Source: Segatella oulorum JCM 14966 (GTDB lineage Bacteria > Bacteroidota > Bacteroidia > Bacteroidales > Bacteroidaceae). From it: a DNA stretch of 64,000 nucleotides. Where the stretch lies: contig NZ_BAJQ01000002.1 of assembly GCF_000613785.1 (NCBI RefSeq), positions 1-64,000 of the forward strand, written 5' to 3'. Each line of letters opens with the position of its first letter. The first letter of the stretch is position 1. Of this stretch, positions 1-17,488 are shown in pieces. The notes beneath the pieces were generated by a model. That model worked only from the letters and a program-made list of their open reading frames with translations. It did not search any database and was not told the origin of the DNA. The position numbers and the translations under genes are program-made.

Positions 1-1
1 T

Positions 2-292
2 CCCTTATTTGAAATATTAATGATAACAGAGCCTGCCTATGTTAGATATGATTATGATCCGAAAGGCGCTAAAGGGCAAAAACACCCGCTATGTCATTTT
101 GATTGTAACTTTATTGATGTTCATCACTACAAAATAGGCTTGCATTATCGTGTTAATTTAGTCCAAGTAGAGGATTTGCTGGATAAAGACACAGACAGCT
201 GGTTTATTGCTAAGTATAAGGAGCCCGCCCTGGAGATAAAGAAAAGGCTTAAAGTAAGGTTTACTAAAACCAGGAAAGGTAAATGTAAGTAA
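2..292 (+). CDS. C-terminal part of an uncharacterised protein, cut by the window edge
   Basis: The reading frame is open from base 2 and runs to a stop at 290-292, so the ATG at base 20 is probably internal and the gene starts outside the window. The visible part (about 96 residues) has a motif-like stretch around VRYDYDP and HPLCHFDCNF and ends in a very basic tail (KKRLKVRFTKTRKGK). The Asp-Tyr-Asp-Pro followed by His-Pro/His-x-Asp pattern loosely recalls DUF2290-type proteins, but this is only an impression. Codon use is AT-rich, like the following 1.5 kb and unlike the GC-richer core, which suggests an accessory gene. No function is assigned. Confidence 0.5.
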   Translation, partial: PLFEILMITEPAYVRYDYDPKGAKGQKHPLCHFDCNFIDVHHYKIGLHYRVNLVQVEDLLDKDTDSWFIAKYKEPALEIKKRLKVRFTKTRKGKCK

Positions 293-372
293 AAATAACT
301 AAAGACGAGCAATGATTAGATTTAATGGAAAGTGTAAAGTAAATTGTGTAAGCTACAATAAAATTAATATAA

Positions 373-537
373 TACTGTCTTTATAAAGGCTCCCCTGATA
401 CCTACCATTTAAAGCGTATTTCCAAATACGACGTACAACTTTGTATTATGTATCAAATACACAACTTTGGCAAGTACGTGAGCAGCAAGTACAAGAAAAA
501 TTTCCTGAAGGAACTGAAATTCGTTTATGACCAATAA
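373..537 (+). pseudogene. possible gene remnant, 54 codons without a start
   Basis: A stop-to-stop frame of 54 codons ends in a protein-like string (KYVSSKYKKNFLKELKFVYD) with balanced charged and hydrophobic residues. It has only one internal ATG, and a stop lies immediately upstream. It could be the tail of a decayed gene related to the accessory DNA at the left edge. The opposite-strand frame over the same bases is rich in F, V and L and looks like a shadow. Weak evidence; no family recognised. Confidence 0.2.
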
Positions 538-1119
538 AACAGAATCAGAGAAGACAATAACAAAAGTCCCACAATAATACATGAGTCTAAAAAAAACAAA
601 ACTCAATTGAATATAGGCTATTAACTTCCCCTCTCAGCCGTTCATACATCCATCTGTAAAAATATATAGGAATCCATCTATTCACAAGCAGTAGAAAATA
701 TATCAGTATATGTTGTCGAAGAAATAATTTCCAGGACGGGTGGGCCTATCAAGCCATAGATGTACGACGATAATTATGTCGAGATGGTATGTCACAAACT
801 CAGAAACTAAACCAAGAAAAAGAAGAAAAGAAGGAGGATTTATGACCATTCTCCTCATTTTTCATTTTTTTCAAGCAATAGATGGTGAAAAAGAATGAAA
901 ATCTTACCAAAAACACTTGTTATTCAAAGCAGATGATTATCTTTGCAAAAAGAATAACAAGCGTTCTTTGTTGATGTAGAAACCTGCAGTTAAGAGCATT
1001 TCGCTCGTTTCTAAATCGTTACCTTTTTAGTTTATACAATATGGTAACTCCTTTATTTTTAGTTAGATACATTTTAGAAAATATCTTCAAGTGTGAAAGA
1101 TTTCACATAAAAGTACTTA
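538..1119. other. AT-rich intergenic DNA without a convincing gene
   Basis: No open frame with protein-like composition is visible on either strand. A GGAG...CTCC inverted repeat followed by a T-rich run (about 832-880) could be a weak terminator. TATCTTTG at 938-945 matches the Bacteroidetes -7 element TAnnTTTG, with TTGT at 917-920 as a poor -33 element. If used, transcription would run rightward toward manC through a leader of almost 900 nt. Confidence 0.4.
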
Positions 1120-1207
1120 TTCGAATAAGATACGAGTAAAAGTCAAGTAAAATTCGAGTAAAACCCGAATAAGATTCGGGTAAGATCCGAATGAAATCCG
1201 AATAAAA
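1120..1207. repeat. 11-bp degenerate tandem repeat, 8 units
   Basis: Eight consecutive 11-mers with a consensus close to tTCGAGTAAAA (variants include TACGAGTAAAA, CCCGAATAAGA and TCCGAATAAAA) lie head to tail with no length change. A twelve-base relative follows at 1208-1219. Eleven bases is about one helical turn, so the conserved CGA/TAA positions face the same side of the DNA. There is no coding frame across it. Confidence 0.7.
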
Positions 1208-1520
1208 TTGCAAGTAAGATGATTGAAATTCATTAAAATTGCAGCTTTTTCTTGCACATATCAATTAAAATACTTATATTCGTTGGCAGCGTAACGTCTA
1301 TGTCTGAAAGGGCAAATGCCCACCACTACGACTGCAAAAGGTGGTGGAAGGCTGGAGAACAAAAGCGCCTCATGCCCCTATGCTCCATTCATGGCGCAGT
1401 AAAGGGAGGCGGAAGTGCAAAGACAGCAGGCACCATCAGGCCTGGAATTAGGTTCTTCTCAGCACAAGAGGGGTCGGAAAGCAAGACTTCGAGCAAGTAA
1501 TTACCCCCCTTTGGAGCGGG
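1208..1520. other. spacer between 11-bp repeats and manC leader repeats
   Basis: GC content rises here. An 82-codon plus-strand frame (1252-1500) has unusual composition (many W, H, K, G) and no recognisable motif, so I do not call it a gene. A short inverted repeat, CCACCACT...AGGTGGTGG, lies at about 1319-1347. Nothing else was identified. Confidence 0.35.
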
Positions 1521-1860
1521 ATTGCCACACACTAAAATCGTTAAAACAAATGACAACATCATTTAATAAAGCAATGACACCACCCGTAATTGCGACACAC
1601 TAAAATCGTTAAAACAAATGACGACAGCATTCAAATCAATGACACTACCAATAATTGTCACACACTAAAATTGTTAAAACAAATGACAACAGCATTCAAA
1701 TCAATGACACCACCAATAATTGTCACACACTAAGGTTGTTAAAACAAATGGCGACAGCATTTAATAAATCAATGACACTACCCGTAATTGCCACACACTA
1801 AAATTGTTAAAACAAATGACAACAGCATTTAAATCAATGACACCACCCGTAAATCGCGAA
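1521..1860 (+). repeat. 65/68-bp tandem repeats carrying copies of the manC 5' end and four mini-ORFs
   Basis: Each unit contains an ATG, 15-16 sense codons, a TAA, and a 14-nt gap of the type AATCGTTAAAACAA before the next ATG. ATGs lie at 1550, 1618, 1683, 1748 and 1816 (spacings 68, 65, 65, 68). The first four open MTTSFNKAMTPPVIATH, MTTAFKSMTLPIIVTH, MTTAFKSMTPPIIVTH and MATAFNKSMTLPVIATH, each then a stop. The fifth (MTTAFKSMTPPV) runs into manC. A partial unit precedes the first ATG (1521-1549). The 3-bp length variants keep each mini-ORF frame, but the 65-bp period shifts frame between units. The array therefore looks like duplication of the manC start region, with an in-register stop in every copy except the last. 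Confidence 0.85.
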
Positions 1861-2937
1861 CATTACTTCTGCGTTATCCTCGCAGGAGGGAAAGGAAGAA
1901 GGCTGTGGCCTTGCAGCCGTGAGCACCATCCTAAGCAGTTTGTTGATTTCTTTGGCACAGGAAAGACACAGCTTCAACAAGCCTATGACCGCATGAAGCG
2001 GATGCTTCCACAGGCCAATATCTACATCAACACAAACGAAAGCTATCGCCATTTGGTAGAAGAGCAACTGCCCGAAGTGGCTCCAGATCACATCATGGCC
2101 GAGCCCATCTATCGCAACACGGCACCCAGTGTGGCATGGGCAACCCATCGCATCGCACGTGTTTGCCCACAAGCCTGCCTGCTGATGGTGCCCGCCGACC
2201 AAACCGTTGTGCACGAAGACATCTTCGAAAAAGACGTGATGGAGGCCTTCGCGTTTGTCGAACAGCACGCCAGTCTGCTCACCATGGCCGTCAAACCCAC
2301 GCGCCCCGAGCCCGGATATGGTTATATTCAGATGGGAGAACGCAGCGGTGTCGGTGATATTTACCAAGTAAAAACCTTCACCGAAAAACCCGATCGCGAC
2401 TTTGCCCAGCTCTTTTTAGATAGCGGCGAATGGTTTTGGAACACGGGAATGTTCATCTCTCACTTATCCTTTTTACAAGAGAGTCTATCCAAACTCCTCC
2501 CACCCGTGCTGCGTGAGCTCGACGAAATGCACCCCCATTGGACGCTTGATGACGAAGAAAACTATGTGAAACAATATTTCTCGCGCTACCCCAACCTATC
2601 CATCGACTTTGGAATACTTGAAAAATCCGAACAAGTATATTTCAAGAATTGCACCTTTGGCTGGGCAGATTTAGGCACATGGCATGGCATCTACGAAGCC
2701 ATCAGCGATGAAACGACGGACAACATCTGCCTCGATTCGGCTGTCATTTTCGACGAAGCCCACCACAACATCGTCAAACTTCCCCACCACCGTTTGGCTA
2801 TTATCCACGGATTAGAAGACTATATTGTGGCCGAGGAAGACAATGTGCTACTCATTTGCAAAAAAGAAGATTCATCTTCGCGCATCCGAAAATACATCAC
2901 TGAGGTGGAATTACAGAAAGGGAAAGACTTTGTATAG
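1816..2937 (+). CDS. manC: mannose-1-phosphate guanylyltransferase
   Basis: This enzyme makes GDP-mannose from mannose-1-phosphate and GTP in the cytoplasm, for capsule or O-antigen sugars. The nucleotidyltransferase signature LAGGKGRRLWPCSR follows about 20 residues after the start, then HPKQF. FTEKPDRDFA (lysine of the sugar-phosphate site), WFWNTGMFI and FGWADLGTWHGIY are also present. At 373 residues it is a single-domain form without the phosphomannose isomerase half. The start at 1816 is chosen because the mini-ORFs upstream begin at the equivalent ATG; 1837 is also possible. The first 12 residues come from repeat sequence and are not typical of the family. It faces rnr across a hairpin-rich gap. 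Translation may be affected by the upstream mini-ORFs (inference). Confidence 0.9.
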   Translation: MTTAFKSMTPPVNREHYFCVILAGGKGRRLWPCSREHHPKQFVDFFGTGKTQLQQAYDRMKRMLPQANIYINTNESYRHLVEEQLPEVAPDHIMAEPIYRNTAPSVAWATHRIARVCPQACLLMVPADQTVVHEDIFEKDVMEAFAFVEQHASLLTMAVKPTRPEPGYGYIQMGERSGVGDIYQVKTFTEKPDRDFAQLFLDSGEWFWNTGMFISHLSFLQESLSKLLPPVLRELDEMHPHWTLDDEENYVKQYFSRYPNLSIDFGILEKSEQVYFKNCTFGWADLGTWHGIYEAISDETTDNICLDSAVIFDEAHHNIVKLPHHRLAIIHGLEDYIVAEEDNVLLICKKEDSSSRIRKYITEVELQKGKDFV

Positions 2938-3117
2938 CACATGTGCATTTAAAATCGCGCACAAAATAATTTACAAAAAGAGCAAGAAGAGCACTATACT
3001 CCCATCCGTAACAAACAACATTGGCCGACATGCTTGCAGCCATCTTTTTTACAGGCAAGCCCCCTTGCGCCGCAGCCTCAAGCTAAAGTTCCCATAAACA
3101 CATACATATTACCCACA

Positions 3118-3176
3118 AAAACGCGCCACTTTGCCACATAATTGCAATGCAATCATGCGGTAAAGTGGCGCATTTT
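3118..3176. repeat. 22-bp module array (3 cores) between manC and rnr
   Basis: Three 15-nt cores at 3118, 3140 and 3162 are separated by 7-nt spacers GCCACAT and ATGCGGT. The first and third cores (ending CGCCACTTT and starting AAAGTGGCG) are inverted copies with 14 of 15 positions pairing, so the array can fold into a long hairpin with a 29-nt loop. It sits between the convergent ends of manC and rnr and may act as a two-way terminator. The same module occurs at eight other sites in the window. Confidence 0.75.
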
Positions 3177-3182
3177 GCTGCA

Positions 3183-5377
3183 CTATTCCACAATAGAGAA
3201 ATCCAATTGCCGTTTCTCTAAGTTCGCTCCTGCCACTTGAATCTCTATCGCATCGCCTAATTGATAGCGATGATGATGCCGCCTTCCGCGCAAACAGAAG
3301 TTGCGTTCGTCGAACTCATAATAATCATCGCTCAGGTCACGCATGGGAATCATGCCCTCACAATGGTTCTCATCAATCTCCGCATAGATGCCATAACTCG
3401 TAATTCCGCTGATATGTGCGGCAAACGTCTCGCCCACTTTATCGGCCATAAACTCTACCATCTTATATTTAATAGAGTCGCGTTCGGCATTCTGTGCCAC
3501 CAATTCCATCTCCGAACAATGCTCACAAAGCTCCTCATAATGCTTCTCATTCGCACTCCTTCCACCTTGGGCATAGCGCGTAAGCAGGCGATGAACCATC
3601 GTATCGGGGTATCTTCTAATCGGACTTGTGAAATGCGTGTAATAGTCGAATGCCAAACCAAAGTGGCCAATATTGTGCACACTATATTTCGCTTTCATCA
3701 TGGCTCTGAGCGCAACCGTTTGAATCATCTTCGCTTCGGGTTTGCCTTCGGTTTCATCCATCAGCTTATTCAAACTGCGAGCCATCGCTCCTTTTGTGCC
3801 TTCGGTTTTCACTTTGTAACCAAATTTCACAATAAATTGGCGCAAGGCCTCCATCTTTTGCGGGTCAGGATTATCGTGCACACGATAGGGAAGCGTCTTT
3901 GCTTTCCGCCCCTTCTTGGCCTTTCCGATGCTCTCGGCCACGGTTTTGTTGGCCAACAGCATAAACTCTTCAATCAACTTGTTGGCATCGTGCGACCGTT
4001 TAAAATAGCAACGCGTGGGCTTTCCCGTTTCGTCAACATCAAAATGCAGTTCTTCGCGGTCAAACTTCACTGCGCCATGCTCAAAACGTTTCTTGCGCAA
4101 CGCCTTGGCTAAACGGTCGAGTGTGATGAGCTGTTCCGCATTTTCGCCCTTGTATTTCCCATTCTTAGGCACAGGAGCAGGCTCACCCGTGCCATCAACC
4201 ACACCATTTTCCTCTAACAACTGCTGCACCTCCTCGTAGGCATAACGACGCTTGCTGCGAATGATGGTGTGCACAATGCGGTAGGTTTTCACATTGGCTT
4301 CGTCGTCAAGTGTGAAGATTACGCTATAAGCCAATTTGTCTTCGTCGGGACGCAGGGAGCAAATGAAGTTGCAAAGGCGCTCGGGAAGCATCGGGATGGT
4401 GCGGTCTACCAAATAAATACTCGTTGCACGCTTCACTGCTTCTTTATCAATCACGCTCCCTTCCGTCACGTAATGGCTCACATCGGCAATATGAACCCCC
4501 ACCTGCCACAGCCCTTTGTCGAGCTTTTCGATGGAAAGGGCATCGTCAAAATCTTTCGCATCGTGGGGATCAATGGTGCAAGTGAACGCCGACCTAAAGT
4601 CTTCCCGCTCGGCAACATCCTGTGGTGTAATCTCTCCTGTTATCTTGTTAGCGGCCTCTTCCACCGCTTTTGGGTAGACATAGGGCAGTCCATATTGTGC
4701 CAAAATGGTGTTCATCTCGGTGTCGTTATCGCCTGTCTGGCCAATCACATCCACCACTTCGCCCACCAAATTCTTGTGTTCTGCGTCGGGCCATTGCGTG
4801 ATTTTCACAATCGCTTTGTCGTTGGTTTTTCCACCTTTCAGCTTGCGTTTCGGAATGATAATGTCGCTTGCAAAGATGTTTTCGGTCGTGATGAGATAGG
4901 CAAAGTCCTTGCCTACACGCAGTTTTCCTACGAACTGGTCTTTCTTTCTCTGCAAGATTTCAATCACTTGTGCCTCTTTGATGTGATGTTGTCGGCGCGC
5001 ATGAAACTCACTTTCACGCGATCTCCGTTGGTAGCCCACAACGAATTGCGTTCCGAAACGAAAATAGGAGTGCCGCCATCATCGGGCAAAAAAGCGTTCT
5101 TGCCATTTGCTTTGCGCAAGAACGTCCCCTCTTGCACCTGCCCTTTCGTGTTGAGTTTGTAGGAACTATCGGTCACTTTCACCAGAAAATCATCCCATGC
5201 CATCTCCTCAATCATGTCGATAGCCAACATTTTCAGGGGGTGCGTGTCGAGCTTCAACGCACGGAAAATCTCTTTAAAACTCAATGTTCTATCACCTTGC
5301 GAAGAGAAAAACGCCTGCAATCGTTCCTGCAACTGCTTTCTGCTCATGCGCTTTCCACCTTTTTTCCCTTTTCCCAT
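3183..5377 (-). CDS. rnr: ribonuclease R, interrupted by one frameshift
   Basis: This is a 3'-5' exoribonuclease of the RNB family, acting on structured RNA in the cytoplasm. The N-terminal 130 residues (MGKGKKGGKRMSRKQLQERL onward, winged-helix plus cold-shock region) are in one frame. The rest, from RQHHIKEAQV through the RNB catalytic region (IDPHDAKDFDDALS, with the metal-binding Asp cluster, and HFTSPIRRYPD) to the C-terminal S1 domain, is in another. The switch is at about 4994-4995, where the plus strand reads GTCGGCGCG; one extra G would restore a continuous protein of about 730 residues, the usual size. The start at 5377 begins with the typical Lys/Gly-rich leader. Either a real mutation or a lost base in the assembly. 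Confidence 0.88.
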
Positions 5378-13901: not shown

Positions 13902-13949
13902 GCAGGTGCCTTTGCTCCGCAAACTTCAAAGCAAATAACGCTGGATGCT

Positions 13950-14211
13950 TGCGGAGCTTCCGCAAATAGTAAAACAAATATTTTAGCGCTTGCGGAGCTT
14001 CCGCAAATGGCAAAACAAACTTTTTAATGCTTGCGGAGCTTCCGCAAATAGCAAAACAAACATTTTAGCGCTTGCGGAGCTTCCGCAAATGACAAAACAA
14101 ACATTTTAGTGCTTGCGGAGCTTCCGCAAATGGCAAAACAAACTTTTGGCGCTTGCGGAGCTTCCGCAAATCACAAAACAAACTTTTGGTGCTTGCGGAG
14201 CTTCCGCAAGC
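13950..14211. repeat. 40/41-bp tandem array with palindromic heads, 7 units (array B)
   Basis: TTGCGGA-GCT-TCCGCAA, a perfect 7-bp stem with a 3-nt loop, recurs with the GCGG element at 13951, 13992, 14033, 14074, 14115, 14155 and 14195 (steps 41, 41, 41, 41, 40, 40). Tails are of the type ATGGCAAAACAAACTTTTT. The array fills the gap between the TonB-receptor gene and ribD. Minus-strand frames across it are repeat artefacts. Confidence 0.88.
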
Positions 14212-16552: not shown

Positions 16553-17488
16553 CTATTTCCATGGCACGATGCGCGCAATCTTGGGTTCCTCGTCCTCCTT
16601 AAAGGGGGTGGATTCATAGCGAAGGGCAACGGTGTCGGCTGCATTTTTCGAGAAAGCGCAGGTCATTTTCGTCCATGGGTCTTCATCGTTATCTTCGAAG
16701 TTCTGCGTTTTGCGCACCCGTTCGACATCTTGCAACGGCCGTCCAAACAGCACTTCCTCGTCGCCTCGCGCACCTTTCCTGCGCATTTCATCAATCACTT
16801 CCTTCGTGAAATAGGACGAAAGCAAAGGCTCAAGTTCGGCGAAGGTAGCTTTATAATGGATTTTTTCGTGGAAATAGATGGCAAACATCTCGCTCAACCG
16901 CGTCAGCAGATAACCGATATCGGCACGGTCGTCGCCCTCAACATCATAGAGTTTGGGCTTTCCCTGTGCCGGAACACAATAGACGAAGTTGAAAAAGCCA
17001 CAAGCCTCAGGCACATCGTCCGTGAAGTTAAAATAAACCGCTGAGGGCGAAACATGGAGCAATTCAAATGCTGACAGCACATAGTGGCGCGGTGATCCCG
17101 AGAGCATGCGGCTCGAAATCTCTTTGTTTTTCAGCACCATCCGACCGCGATAACGCAGCGTGAGAAACACCGAATTATTCAATTCATAGTCGTTGGGCAA
17201 GTATTTAATCTTGTAACGATTAGGCTTCTTGATGCCATAGATTTGCCAATCGCCCACCACCGTGTCGATTACTTCGGTCGAACTGATAATCACGCGCGAC
17301 GTATCGTCTTCTTCTACGGTGTCAATCTCTTCTTCTACGGTGTCAATCTCTTCCTCTACGGTGTCAATCTCCACTTTTGTTGCGCCCGTTCGCGCATCAC
17401 AAACACGGTTGTTGCGGTGGGTTTGCCACGAAACAAGCCCGAAAACAACCATCAACATCACCCATCCTAAAATCGTTATCTGCTTCAT
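16553..17488 (-). CDS. membrane-anchored protein of unknown function with a heptad repeat
   Basis: 311 residues. An N-terminal hydrophobic segment (ITILGWVMLMVVFGLVSW) should anchor it in the inner membrane with the rest outside; there is no lipobox. Next comes an acidic linker in which EEIDTVE is repeated about three times (DNA period 21 bp, near 17310-17375). The folded part holds RYKIKYLPNDYELNNSVFLT and a Cys-containing segment, VPEACGFFNFVYCVP. No family recognised. It ends 31 bases from bcp (convergent) and lies 47 bases downstream of a second membrane protein on the same strand. Confidence 0.7.
   Translation of the reverse strand: MKQITILGWVMLMVVFGLVSWQTHRNNRVCDARTGATKVEIDTVEEEIDTVEEEIDTVEEDDTSRVIISSTEVIDTVVGDWQIYGIKKPNRYKIKYLPNDYELNNSVFLTLRYRGRMVLKNKEISSRMLSGSPRHYVLSAFELLHVSPSAVYFNFTDDVPEACGFFNFVYCVPAQGKPKLYDVEGDDRADIGYLLTRLSEMFAIYFHEKIHYKATFAELEPLLSSYFTKEVIDEMRRKGARGDEEVLFGRPLQDVERVRKTQNFEDNDEDPWTKMTCAFSKNAADTVALRYESTPFKEDEEPKIARIVPWK

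What the first reader, a model, noticed from the sequence alone, without database searches (positions are those of the whole stretch)
1521..1860. Four tandem mini-ORFs copying the manC start codons precede manC
Each 65/68-bp unit repeats the manC start region but closes with a TAA after 16-17 residues (MTTAFKSMTPPIIVTH type). Only the last copy continues into the enzyme. The stop, gap and ATG are conserved in all units, and length changes inside the mini-ORFs are of 3 bp, which keeps them open; this suggests selection on translation. Repeat-number change could tune how many ribosomes reach manC and so GDP-mannose and surface polysaccharide.
Basis: partly seen in the sequence, partly recalled or inferred. 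Interest (0 to 1): 0.78.

Follow-up and report, generated by a model that had tools for sequence, protein, structure and literature searches.

The report
Repeated gene-start copies before manC
In a small Prevotella lineage the start of the sugar-nucleotide gene manC has been copied several times in front of the gene, so a ribosome may meet several short dead-end reading frames before the real one; the number of copies differs between two strains, but whether this tunes the gene is unproven.

Summary
Window 1521-1847 holds 4.9 tandem copies of the manC start region. Four mini-ORFs (17, 16, 16, 17 codons) each end in TAA 14 nt before the next ATG. Prevotella sp. HJM029 has the same array with three mini-ORF units, all open, so copy number has changed by one unit. 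By DNA search, 2 of 276 genus genomes at least 90% complete carry it. A promoter shared with manC orthologues lies upstream (-7 box 1275-1282), so the array is probably in the mRNA leader: 533 nt from -7 box to ATG, against 9-50 nt in 42 orthologues. Mini-ORF translation is likely but unmeasured.

Selection on translation is only weakly supported. Duplicating a gene start automatically copies its ATG, stop and gap; seven of seven units staying open has a neutral probability of about 0.2-0.3 from substitutions, and the peptide is not conserved. Three of four arrays anchored in both strains, manC's included, differ in length, so this looks like a VNTR process that caught a gene start. A GC-rich leader of about 235 nt before the array may be a structured RNA (weak, mixed evidence).

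The parts
1122..1207 (.). Separate 22-bp (11-bp) tandem array upstream of the promoter
   Evidence: TRF; also in HJM029
1251..1282 (+). Predicted manC promoter P1 (CTTG-N20-TATATTCG, Bacteroidetes -33/-7 type), -7 box 1275-1282
   Evidence: 43 of 54 distinct relatives' loci have a match to the pattern within 120 nt of the VILAGG motif (in HJM029 it lies further off). Promoter consensus from a passage of PMC7366714. No TSS data.
1289..1520 (+). GC-rich leader between P1 and the array, possibly a structured RNA; contains ORF0 1300-1500, which does not evolve like a coding gene
   Evidence: 14 substitutions against HJM029; 63 RNAalifold pairs, 0 broken, 2 compensatory (randomised 0.02-0.065). Against: window's own minimum-energy fold has 4 broken pairs and HJM029 fits it no better than random (0.51); fold z-score -0.04. 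ORF0: 10 nonsynonymous, 1 synonymous codon change. Rfam: no match above threshold.
1510..1540 (+). Weak second promoter-like match P2 (TTTG-N19-TAAAATCG) at the front edge of the array
   Evidence: Read by eye; 2 mismatches in the -7 box (1 in HJM029); would leave almost no leader before the ATG at 1550
1521..1588 (+). Repeat unit 1 (68 bp)
1550..1603 (+). Mini-ORF 1, 17 codons + TAA
1589..1653 (+). Repeat unit 2 (65 bp)
1618..1668 (+). Mini-ORF 2, 16 codons + TAA
1654..1718 (+). Repeat unit 3 (65 bp)
1683..1733 (+). Mini-ORF 3, 16 codons + TAA
1719..1786 (+). Repeat unit 4 (68 bp), the unit next to manC; no substitution against HJM029, one 1-bp indel
1748..1801 (+). Mini-ORF 4, 17 codons + TAA
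1787..1847 (+). Partial fifth repeat copy, containing the start of manC
1816..2937 (+). manC-like mannose-1-phosphate guanylyltransferase gene (ATG 1816; alternative and possibly ancestral ATG 1837)
   Evidence: PF00483 111.8 bits; TIGR01479 236.8 bits, below its cut-off 372.95, isomerase part missing; start comparison

Best explanation
The array is a tandem duplication of manC's own translation-start region, made by the repeat-expansion process that has produced many arrays in these genomes, and it lies in the manC mRNA leader downstream of the conserved promoter. Because each copy closely reproduces the sequence around the manC AUG, ribosomes probably start on the mini-ORFs, stop at the TAA 14 nt before the next AUG, and partly restart there; manC is then fed by direct entry at its own AUG and by restart from the unit next to it. 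Copy number changes by whole units. Shown: sequence anatomy, open frames in two strains, copy-number difference, upstream position of the orthologous promoter motif. Inferred: one transcript through the array, translation of the mini-ORFs, reinitiation. Not shown: that unit number changes manC output or that selection keeps the mini-ORFs. This statement leaves open whether the mini-ORFs have a function, so it overlaps with the first two rivals.
For: Array and open mini-ORFs. Orthologous array with one unit fewer and 3 of 3 units open in HJM029: (span 67 bp shorter). By eye, H unit 1 resembles the left part of window unit 1 joined to the right part of unit 2, as a one-unit deletion or gain could leave. 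Promoter P1 is shared with orthologues that have no array; the -7 box to ATG distance is 9-50 nt in 42 of them, against 533 nt here. The array is A-rich and G-poor (A 45%, G 10%) and predicted less paired (mean unpaired 0.62) than the leader (0.46) or early manC (0.40). Prevotella ribosomes were proposed to choose starts by unstructured AT-rich upstream regions without Shine-Dalgarno pairing (PMC3155529, abstract and Discussion read). General repeat process: 3 of 4 arrays anchored in both strains, manC's included, differ in length by about whole units (a fifth, 1122-1208, could not be anchored across a rearrangement).
Against: No RNA-seq, TSS or ribosome data. P2 at 1510-1540 could start a transcript at the array edge (still upstream of all mini-ORFs, but almost leaderless). 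In the window the array's AUGs themselves are predicted only 3-60% unpaired. The adenine at -3 reported to favour initiation in Bacteroidetes (PMC6847099, passages) is absent: -3 is C before the first ATG of each unit and T or G before the second, in the manC copy as well. Openness of the units is not significant from substitutions (P about 0.2-0.3). The longest invariant run, 13 nt ending in the ATG, is not unusual (permutation p = 0.19). Only two genomes are known to carry the array.
Confidence: 0.55

Rival explanations
1. Neutral VNTR: repeat slippage duplicated DNA that happened to contain a gene start. The mini-ORFs are an automatic by-product, possibly translated but tolerated, with no regulatory role.
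For: Duplicating ...GTA|ATTGCCACACACTAA... makes the same stop at every junction. Neutral openness probability 0.2-0.3. Peptide unconstrained, 8 nonsynonymous to 5 synonymous. Tandem arrays are common (62 in 1.05 Mb of four genomes, orthologous arrays of the two strains counted twice), 52 of 62 have periods near multiples of 21-22 bp, and other arrays vary between the strains too. The unit itself shows a 21-bp internal similarity (p = 0.013). Among the arrays of period 20 or more tested in that survey, only manC's, in both strains, copies a gene start.
Against: AUGs near starts are reported to be underrepresented in Bacteroidetes (PMC6847099, passages), yet 8 stand in the window's array and 6 in HJM029's. 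Unit 4 has no substitution over 118 nt although fourfold sites differ by 7.8% (but 9.6% of all 117-nt windows in that region are also substitution-free). Both indels spare the frames.
Confidence: 0.5
2. Copy-number tuning: mini-ORFs are selected translational decoys or ribosome feeders, and unit number sets manC output.
For: 7 of 7 open units; unit-number change between strains; frame-sparing indels; unchanged unit 4.
Against: No expression data; statistics weak; peptide not conserved; found in only two genomes.
Confidence: 0.2
3. Leader regulation: the GC-rich 1289-1520 RNA is a folded regulatory element, and the unstructured array is its expression platform or a landing strip for ribosomes and S1; the mini-ORFs are secondary.
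For: 0 of 63 consensus pairs broken, 2 compensatory; randomised substitutions reach 2 compensatory pairs in 2% and the alifold energy in 6.5% of 400 trials. ORF0 is not coding-like.
Against: Only two sequences. The consensus structure was chosen on the same alignment; on the window's own minimum-energy fold 4 pairs break and 1 is compensatory (on HJM029's, 2 break and 1 is compensatory), and HJM029's energy on the window fold is no better than for random substitutions (0.51). Fold z-score -0.04. Divergence is about neutral (14 of 240 columns, against 7.8% at fourfold sites). No Rfam family. A model search of 119 genus genomes gave only the window's own copy and one weak hit, E 0.002 in G140, judged chance.
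Confidence: 0.2
4. DNA-level element: the units are repeated operators (TTGTT-AA-AACAA dyad) or promoters, and the ATGs are incidental.
For: GTTAAAACAAATG is invariant in all nine copies of the two strains; a -7-like octamer recurs in the window's units (TAAAATTG twice, TAAAATCG twice, TAAGGTTG once).
Against: In the internal units no TTTG stands at the -33 position (read). The unit pattern with up to 3 mismatches was found in 1 of 60 genomes searched, the own one, only in the array. The dyad is imperfect in window units 1 and 2 (TCGTT).
Confidence: 0.1

Closest known systems
Translational coupling / short upstream ORF that delivers ribosomes (review PMC12548453, passages read)
   Same: Short ORFs end close to the next start on the same strand; a uORF's role can be only to bring ribosomes.
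   Different: Here several tandem uORFs are copies of the gene's own start, with variable number; coupling is not demonstrated, and the ORFs do not overlap but lie 14 nt apart.
Variable-number tandem repeats / contingency loci (recalled)
   Same: Tandem array next to a gene for a sugar-nucleotide precursor, copy number differs between strains.
   Different: Unit of 65-68 bp; adding or removing a unit does not shift the manC frame; an effect on expression is unknown; other arrays in the genome vary as well.
Leader-peptide attenuation (trp/erm type; recalled)
   Same: Short ORFs in a long 5' leader.
   Different: No conserved codon run or stall motif (Pro-Pro is Leu-Pro in 5 of 7 units), and no intrinsic terminator predicted on the + strand in 1090-3200.
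AUG avoidance around starts in Bacteroidetes (PMC6847099, passages read)
   Same: Same phylum, no Shine-Dalgarno use.
   Different: This leader departs from the trend: 8 ATGs in the array and 5 in the leader before 1816, whereas 37 of 42 orthologue leaders have none and 5 have one.

Membership tests
Translationally coupled uORF leader | Upstream ORF on the same strand ending within tens of nt of the next start | tested here: met
   14-nt gaps, 13 in one of three HJM029 units
Translationally coupled uORF leader | uORF and gene on one transcript | tested here: inconclusive
   Orthologous promoter motif upstream; no TSS or RNA data; weak P2 at 1510-1540
Translationally coupled uORF leader | Translation of the uORF alters translation of the gene | not testable with these tools
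   Needs ribosome profiling or reporter fusions
Leader-peptide attenuator | Conserved regulatory codons or stall sequence | tested here: not met
   8 nonsynonymous: 5 synonymous site changes; Pro/Leu, Thr/Ile and Ala/Val variants
Leader-peptide attenuator | Intrinsic terminator between leader ORF and gene | tested here: not met
   4 terminator-like sites in 1090-3200, all on the - strand; shuffles give 3.1 on average
VNTR locus | Tandem array whose unit number differs between strains | tested here: met
   4 against 3 upstream units; span differs by 67 bp
Phase-variable contingency locus | Repeat number switches or grades expression | not testable with these tools
   No expression data
Known structured RNA (Rfam) for 1289-1520 | Match above a family's gathering score | tested here: not met
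   Window 1-4000 at E up to 1: only two sub-threshold microRNA-model hits, both within 3111-3184
Mannose-1-phosphate guanylyltransferase (ManC/GMP) | NTP_transferase domain (PF00483) | tested here: met
   111.8 bits, cut-off 21.2
TIGR01479 bifunctional GMP/PMI | Score above the equivalog cut-off | tested here: not met
   236.8 against 372.95 bits, profile 3-349 of 467: looks like a guanylyltransferase without the isomerase part

The most novel reading that the evidence does not exclude
A translational rheostat written as a tandem repeat: a bacterium without Shine-Dalgarno use has copied a gene's start region into a string of mini-cistrons, so that ribosome supply to manC, and with it GDP-mannose and surface sugars, is set by a repeat number that can change by unequal recombination.
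Probability: 0.18. Interest if true: 0.78.

Novelty: new variant of a known kind. Interest (0 to 1): 0.48.

Why it matters
Bacteroidetes do not use Shine-Dalgarno pairing and are reported to avoid spare AUGs near starts, so how a ribosome picks among near-identical starts in a row is a natural test of their start selection. If the units are translated, unit number offers a simple graded series for measuring initiation and reinitiation in this phylum. If manC output follows unit number, it would be a translational form of VNTR variation, distinct from frame-switching or promoter-spacing repeats.

Tried and rejected
ORF0 (1300-1500) as a leader protein: rejected, 10 nonsynonymous to 1 synonymous codon change, and no Pfam or NCBIfam match to the longer frame 1252-1497. 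Homologues of leader or array elsewhere: none in plasmids or phages (blastn), none in viral contigs (two exact patterns). In 398 genus genomes, 9 matched: the own one, HJM029 over 573 query bases, and 7 genomes with matches of 25-43 nt only. In 276 genus genomes at least 90% complete, 3 matched: own, HJM029, and one 28-nt match. Leader RNA model in 119 genus genomes: own copy plus one weak hit without convincing DNA similarity. Invariant run before the ATG: p = 0.19, not used as support. Array structure: z = -0.09. Survey for other duplicated gene starts in 1.05 Mb (152 kb own contig, 100 kb HJM029, 400 kb each of two relatives; arrays of period under 20, 6 of 62, not tested): only manC and its HJM029 orthologue; it covers parts of four genomes with my own crude open-frame calls. 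A noncoding substitution rate of 21% printed was not used (it probably includes misaligned or variable stretches), nor the last substitutions listed there near 1509-1520, an alignment-end effect. In one search, 59 loci gave 54 distinct ones (5 duplicates dropped); 43 had a promoter match; L014 (negative length) was dropped, leaving 42. In one search the TRF printout was cut inside the rows of L032; loci on the minus strand were read in the wrong orientation, and this was redone.

Papers: the listings (5-10 rows each, of up to 246 papers) showed no report of tandem copies of a gene's own start as mini-ORFs in bacteria. Only open-licence PubMed Central papers were searched, so this is weak evidence that it is unpublished. 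Seen beyond the listing: PMC3155529 (abstract, Discussion), and passages of PMC6847099, PMC7366714, PMC12548453 and PMC5771137 (the last gave nothing used).

Full report
What is there. Bases 1521-1847 are a tandem array of 65/68-bp units. Four units precede manC and a fifth, partial copy contains the start of manC. Each upstream unit holds an ATG, a 16- or 17-codon frame, TAA, and 14 nt before the next ATG. A second in-frame ATG stands 21 or 24 bp after the first in every unit. The unit has a weak 21-bp internal similarity (51% identity at lag 21, shuffle p = 0.013), so the two ATGs may come from an older 21-bp duplication. Compared with relatives, ATG 1837 fits the usual distance to the VILAGG motif better than ATG 1816, so the start of manC is uncertain.

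Relatives. The genome-contig scan returned two loci: Prevotella sp. HJM029 (L032, manC 98% identical) and Segatella maculosa (65%). HJM029 is taken to be G328 of the whole-genome searches, because contig length (103,120) and position agree. It has the same leader and array with three upstream units, all open. The flank-anchored span is 67 bp shorter, about one unit. By eye its first unit resembles the left part of window unit 1 joined to the right part of unit 2, as a one-unit deletion or gain could leave. One gap there is 13 nt. S. maculosa has no array and a short leader. The DNA was sought in 398 genus genomes (long matches only in the own genome and HJM029) and in 276 genus genomes at least 90% complete (the same two). 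All 276 have a manC-like match, in a few only a distant paralogue at E about 1e-70. In 57 further loci scanned with TRF (L003-L031, L054-L081; three are the same place twice and L071 repeats L064 in the compared stretch), no array overlaps the gene start.

Where transcription starts. A Bacteroidetes-type promoter motif, CTTG-N20-TATATTCG, lies at 1251-1282. Similar motifs stand just upstream of manC in the relatives: 43 of 54 distinct loci match within 120 nt. Of these, 42 gave a usable distance from -7 box to ATG: 9-50 nt. In the window it is 533 nt. The published median 5' UTR of B. thetaiotaomicron is 32 nt (PMC7366714, passage). So the lineage appears to have gained about 235 nt of GC-rich leader plus the array between an old promoter and an old gene. 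A weaker promoter-like match at 1510-1540 cannot be excluded; it too is upstream of every mini-ORF.

Is translation of the mini-ORFs likely? The sequence around each mini-ORF start repeats that around manC's start; GTTAAAACAAATG is identical in all nine copies of both strains. Bacteroidetes do not use Shine-Dalgarno pairing, and Prevotella was proposed to rely on unstructured AT-rich upstream regions (PMC3155529, abstract and Discussion). The array is predicted less paired than the leader or early manC (0.62, 0.46, 0.40 mean unpaired), although its AUGs are predicted only 3-60% unpaired and the favourable A at -3 (PMC6847099, passages) is missing, at manC as well. If manC is translated from this mRNA, the mini-ORFs probably are too. 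Spare AUGs near starts are reported to be underrepresented in Bacteroidetes (PMC6847099, passages). Here 13 ATGs stand between the promoter and 1816, while 37 of 42 orthologue leaders have none.

Is there selection? Not demonstrated. Duplicating a start region reproduces ATG, stop and gap by itself. About 8-10% of random substitutions would break a unit, so 14-16 substitutions leave all units open with probability about 0.2-0.3. Peptide changes are 8 nonsynonymous to 5 synonymous, close to neutral expectation. Two indels spare the frames: 3 bp inside an ORF, and 1 bp in a gap, where 24% of 1-bp deletions would leave the ORF unchanged. Unit 4 and the first 86 bases of manC (from 1816) have no substitution between the strains (first one at 1902) while fourfold sites differ by 7.8%. 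Under 6-8% divergence 118 free bases are unlikely (below 0.001), but 9.6% of all 117-nt windows in the region are also free, and homogenisation within the array is possible. This hints that, if anything is constrained, it is the unit next to manC.

Where the array comes from. Sixty-two tandem arrays were found in 1.05 Mb of four related genomes, orthologous arrays of the two strains counted twice. The periods of 52 of 62 lie near multiples of 21-22 bp (period divided by the nearest multiple within 1.2 of 21.7); periods drawn evenly from 10-140 would give about 39%. The manC unit fits this series. Four arrays could be anchored in both strains: three, manC included, differ in length by about whole units and one does not. 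Repeat expansion and contraction is therefore general here; what is special at manC is that the unit contains a gene start. Among the arrays of period 20 or more in the 1.05 Mb, no other case was found.

The leader. Bases 1289-1520 contain an open frame that is not coding-like. RNAalifold on the two sequences gives 63 pairs with none broken and two compensatory. Randomised substitutions reach two compensatory pairs in 2% of trials and the alifold energy in 6.5%. Against this, the fold is no more stable than shuffles, the window's own minimum-energy fold has four broken pairs and HJM029's energy on it is average for random substitutions (0.51), and divergence is about neutral. A structured leader RNA is a lead, not a finding.

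Verdict. Mechanism I hold most likely: the start region was tandemly duplicated inside the manC leader, the mini-ORFs are translated, and some ribosomes restart at the next AUG. Regulation by unit number is possible but untested, and a by-product without function is at least as likely as a regulatory role.

Noticed in passing
window 1122-56825 and loci L082-L131: Tandem arrays in this genus have periods near multiples of 21-22 bp (two DNA helical turns): 52 of 62 arrays in 1.05 Mb, orthologous arrays counted twice. No explanation tested.
   Followed up: partly
window 1092 and 10088: Synteny with HJM029 breaks at 1092 and at about 10088: window 531-1092 matches (77%) in reverse orientation the HJM029 sequence just beyond the partner of 10088, suggesting an inversion or more complex rearrangement of a segment of about 9 kb carrying manC.
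   Followed up: partly
window 13947-14209 and 17307-17371: Two other arrays (41 bp between genes; 21 bp inside an ORF) differ between window and HJM029 by about one and two units (39 and 42 bp).
   Followed up: partly
window 3111-3184: Long near-perfect hairpin between the convergent ends of manC and the gene on the other strand; matches two microRNA models below threshold, perhaps a bidirectional terminator or palindromic repeat.
   Followed up: no
window 1289-1520: GC-rich leader found only in this lineage; two compensatory changes against HJM029 hint at a structured RNA, other tests do not.
   Followed up: partly
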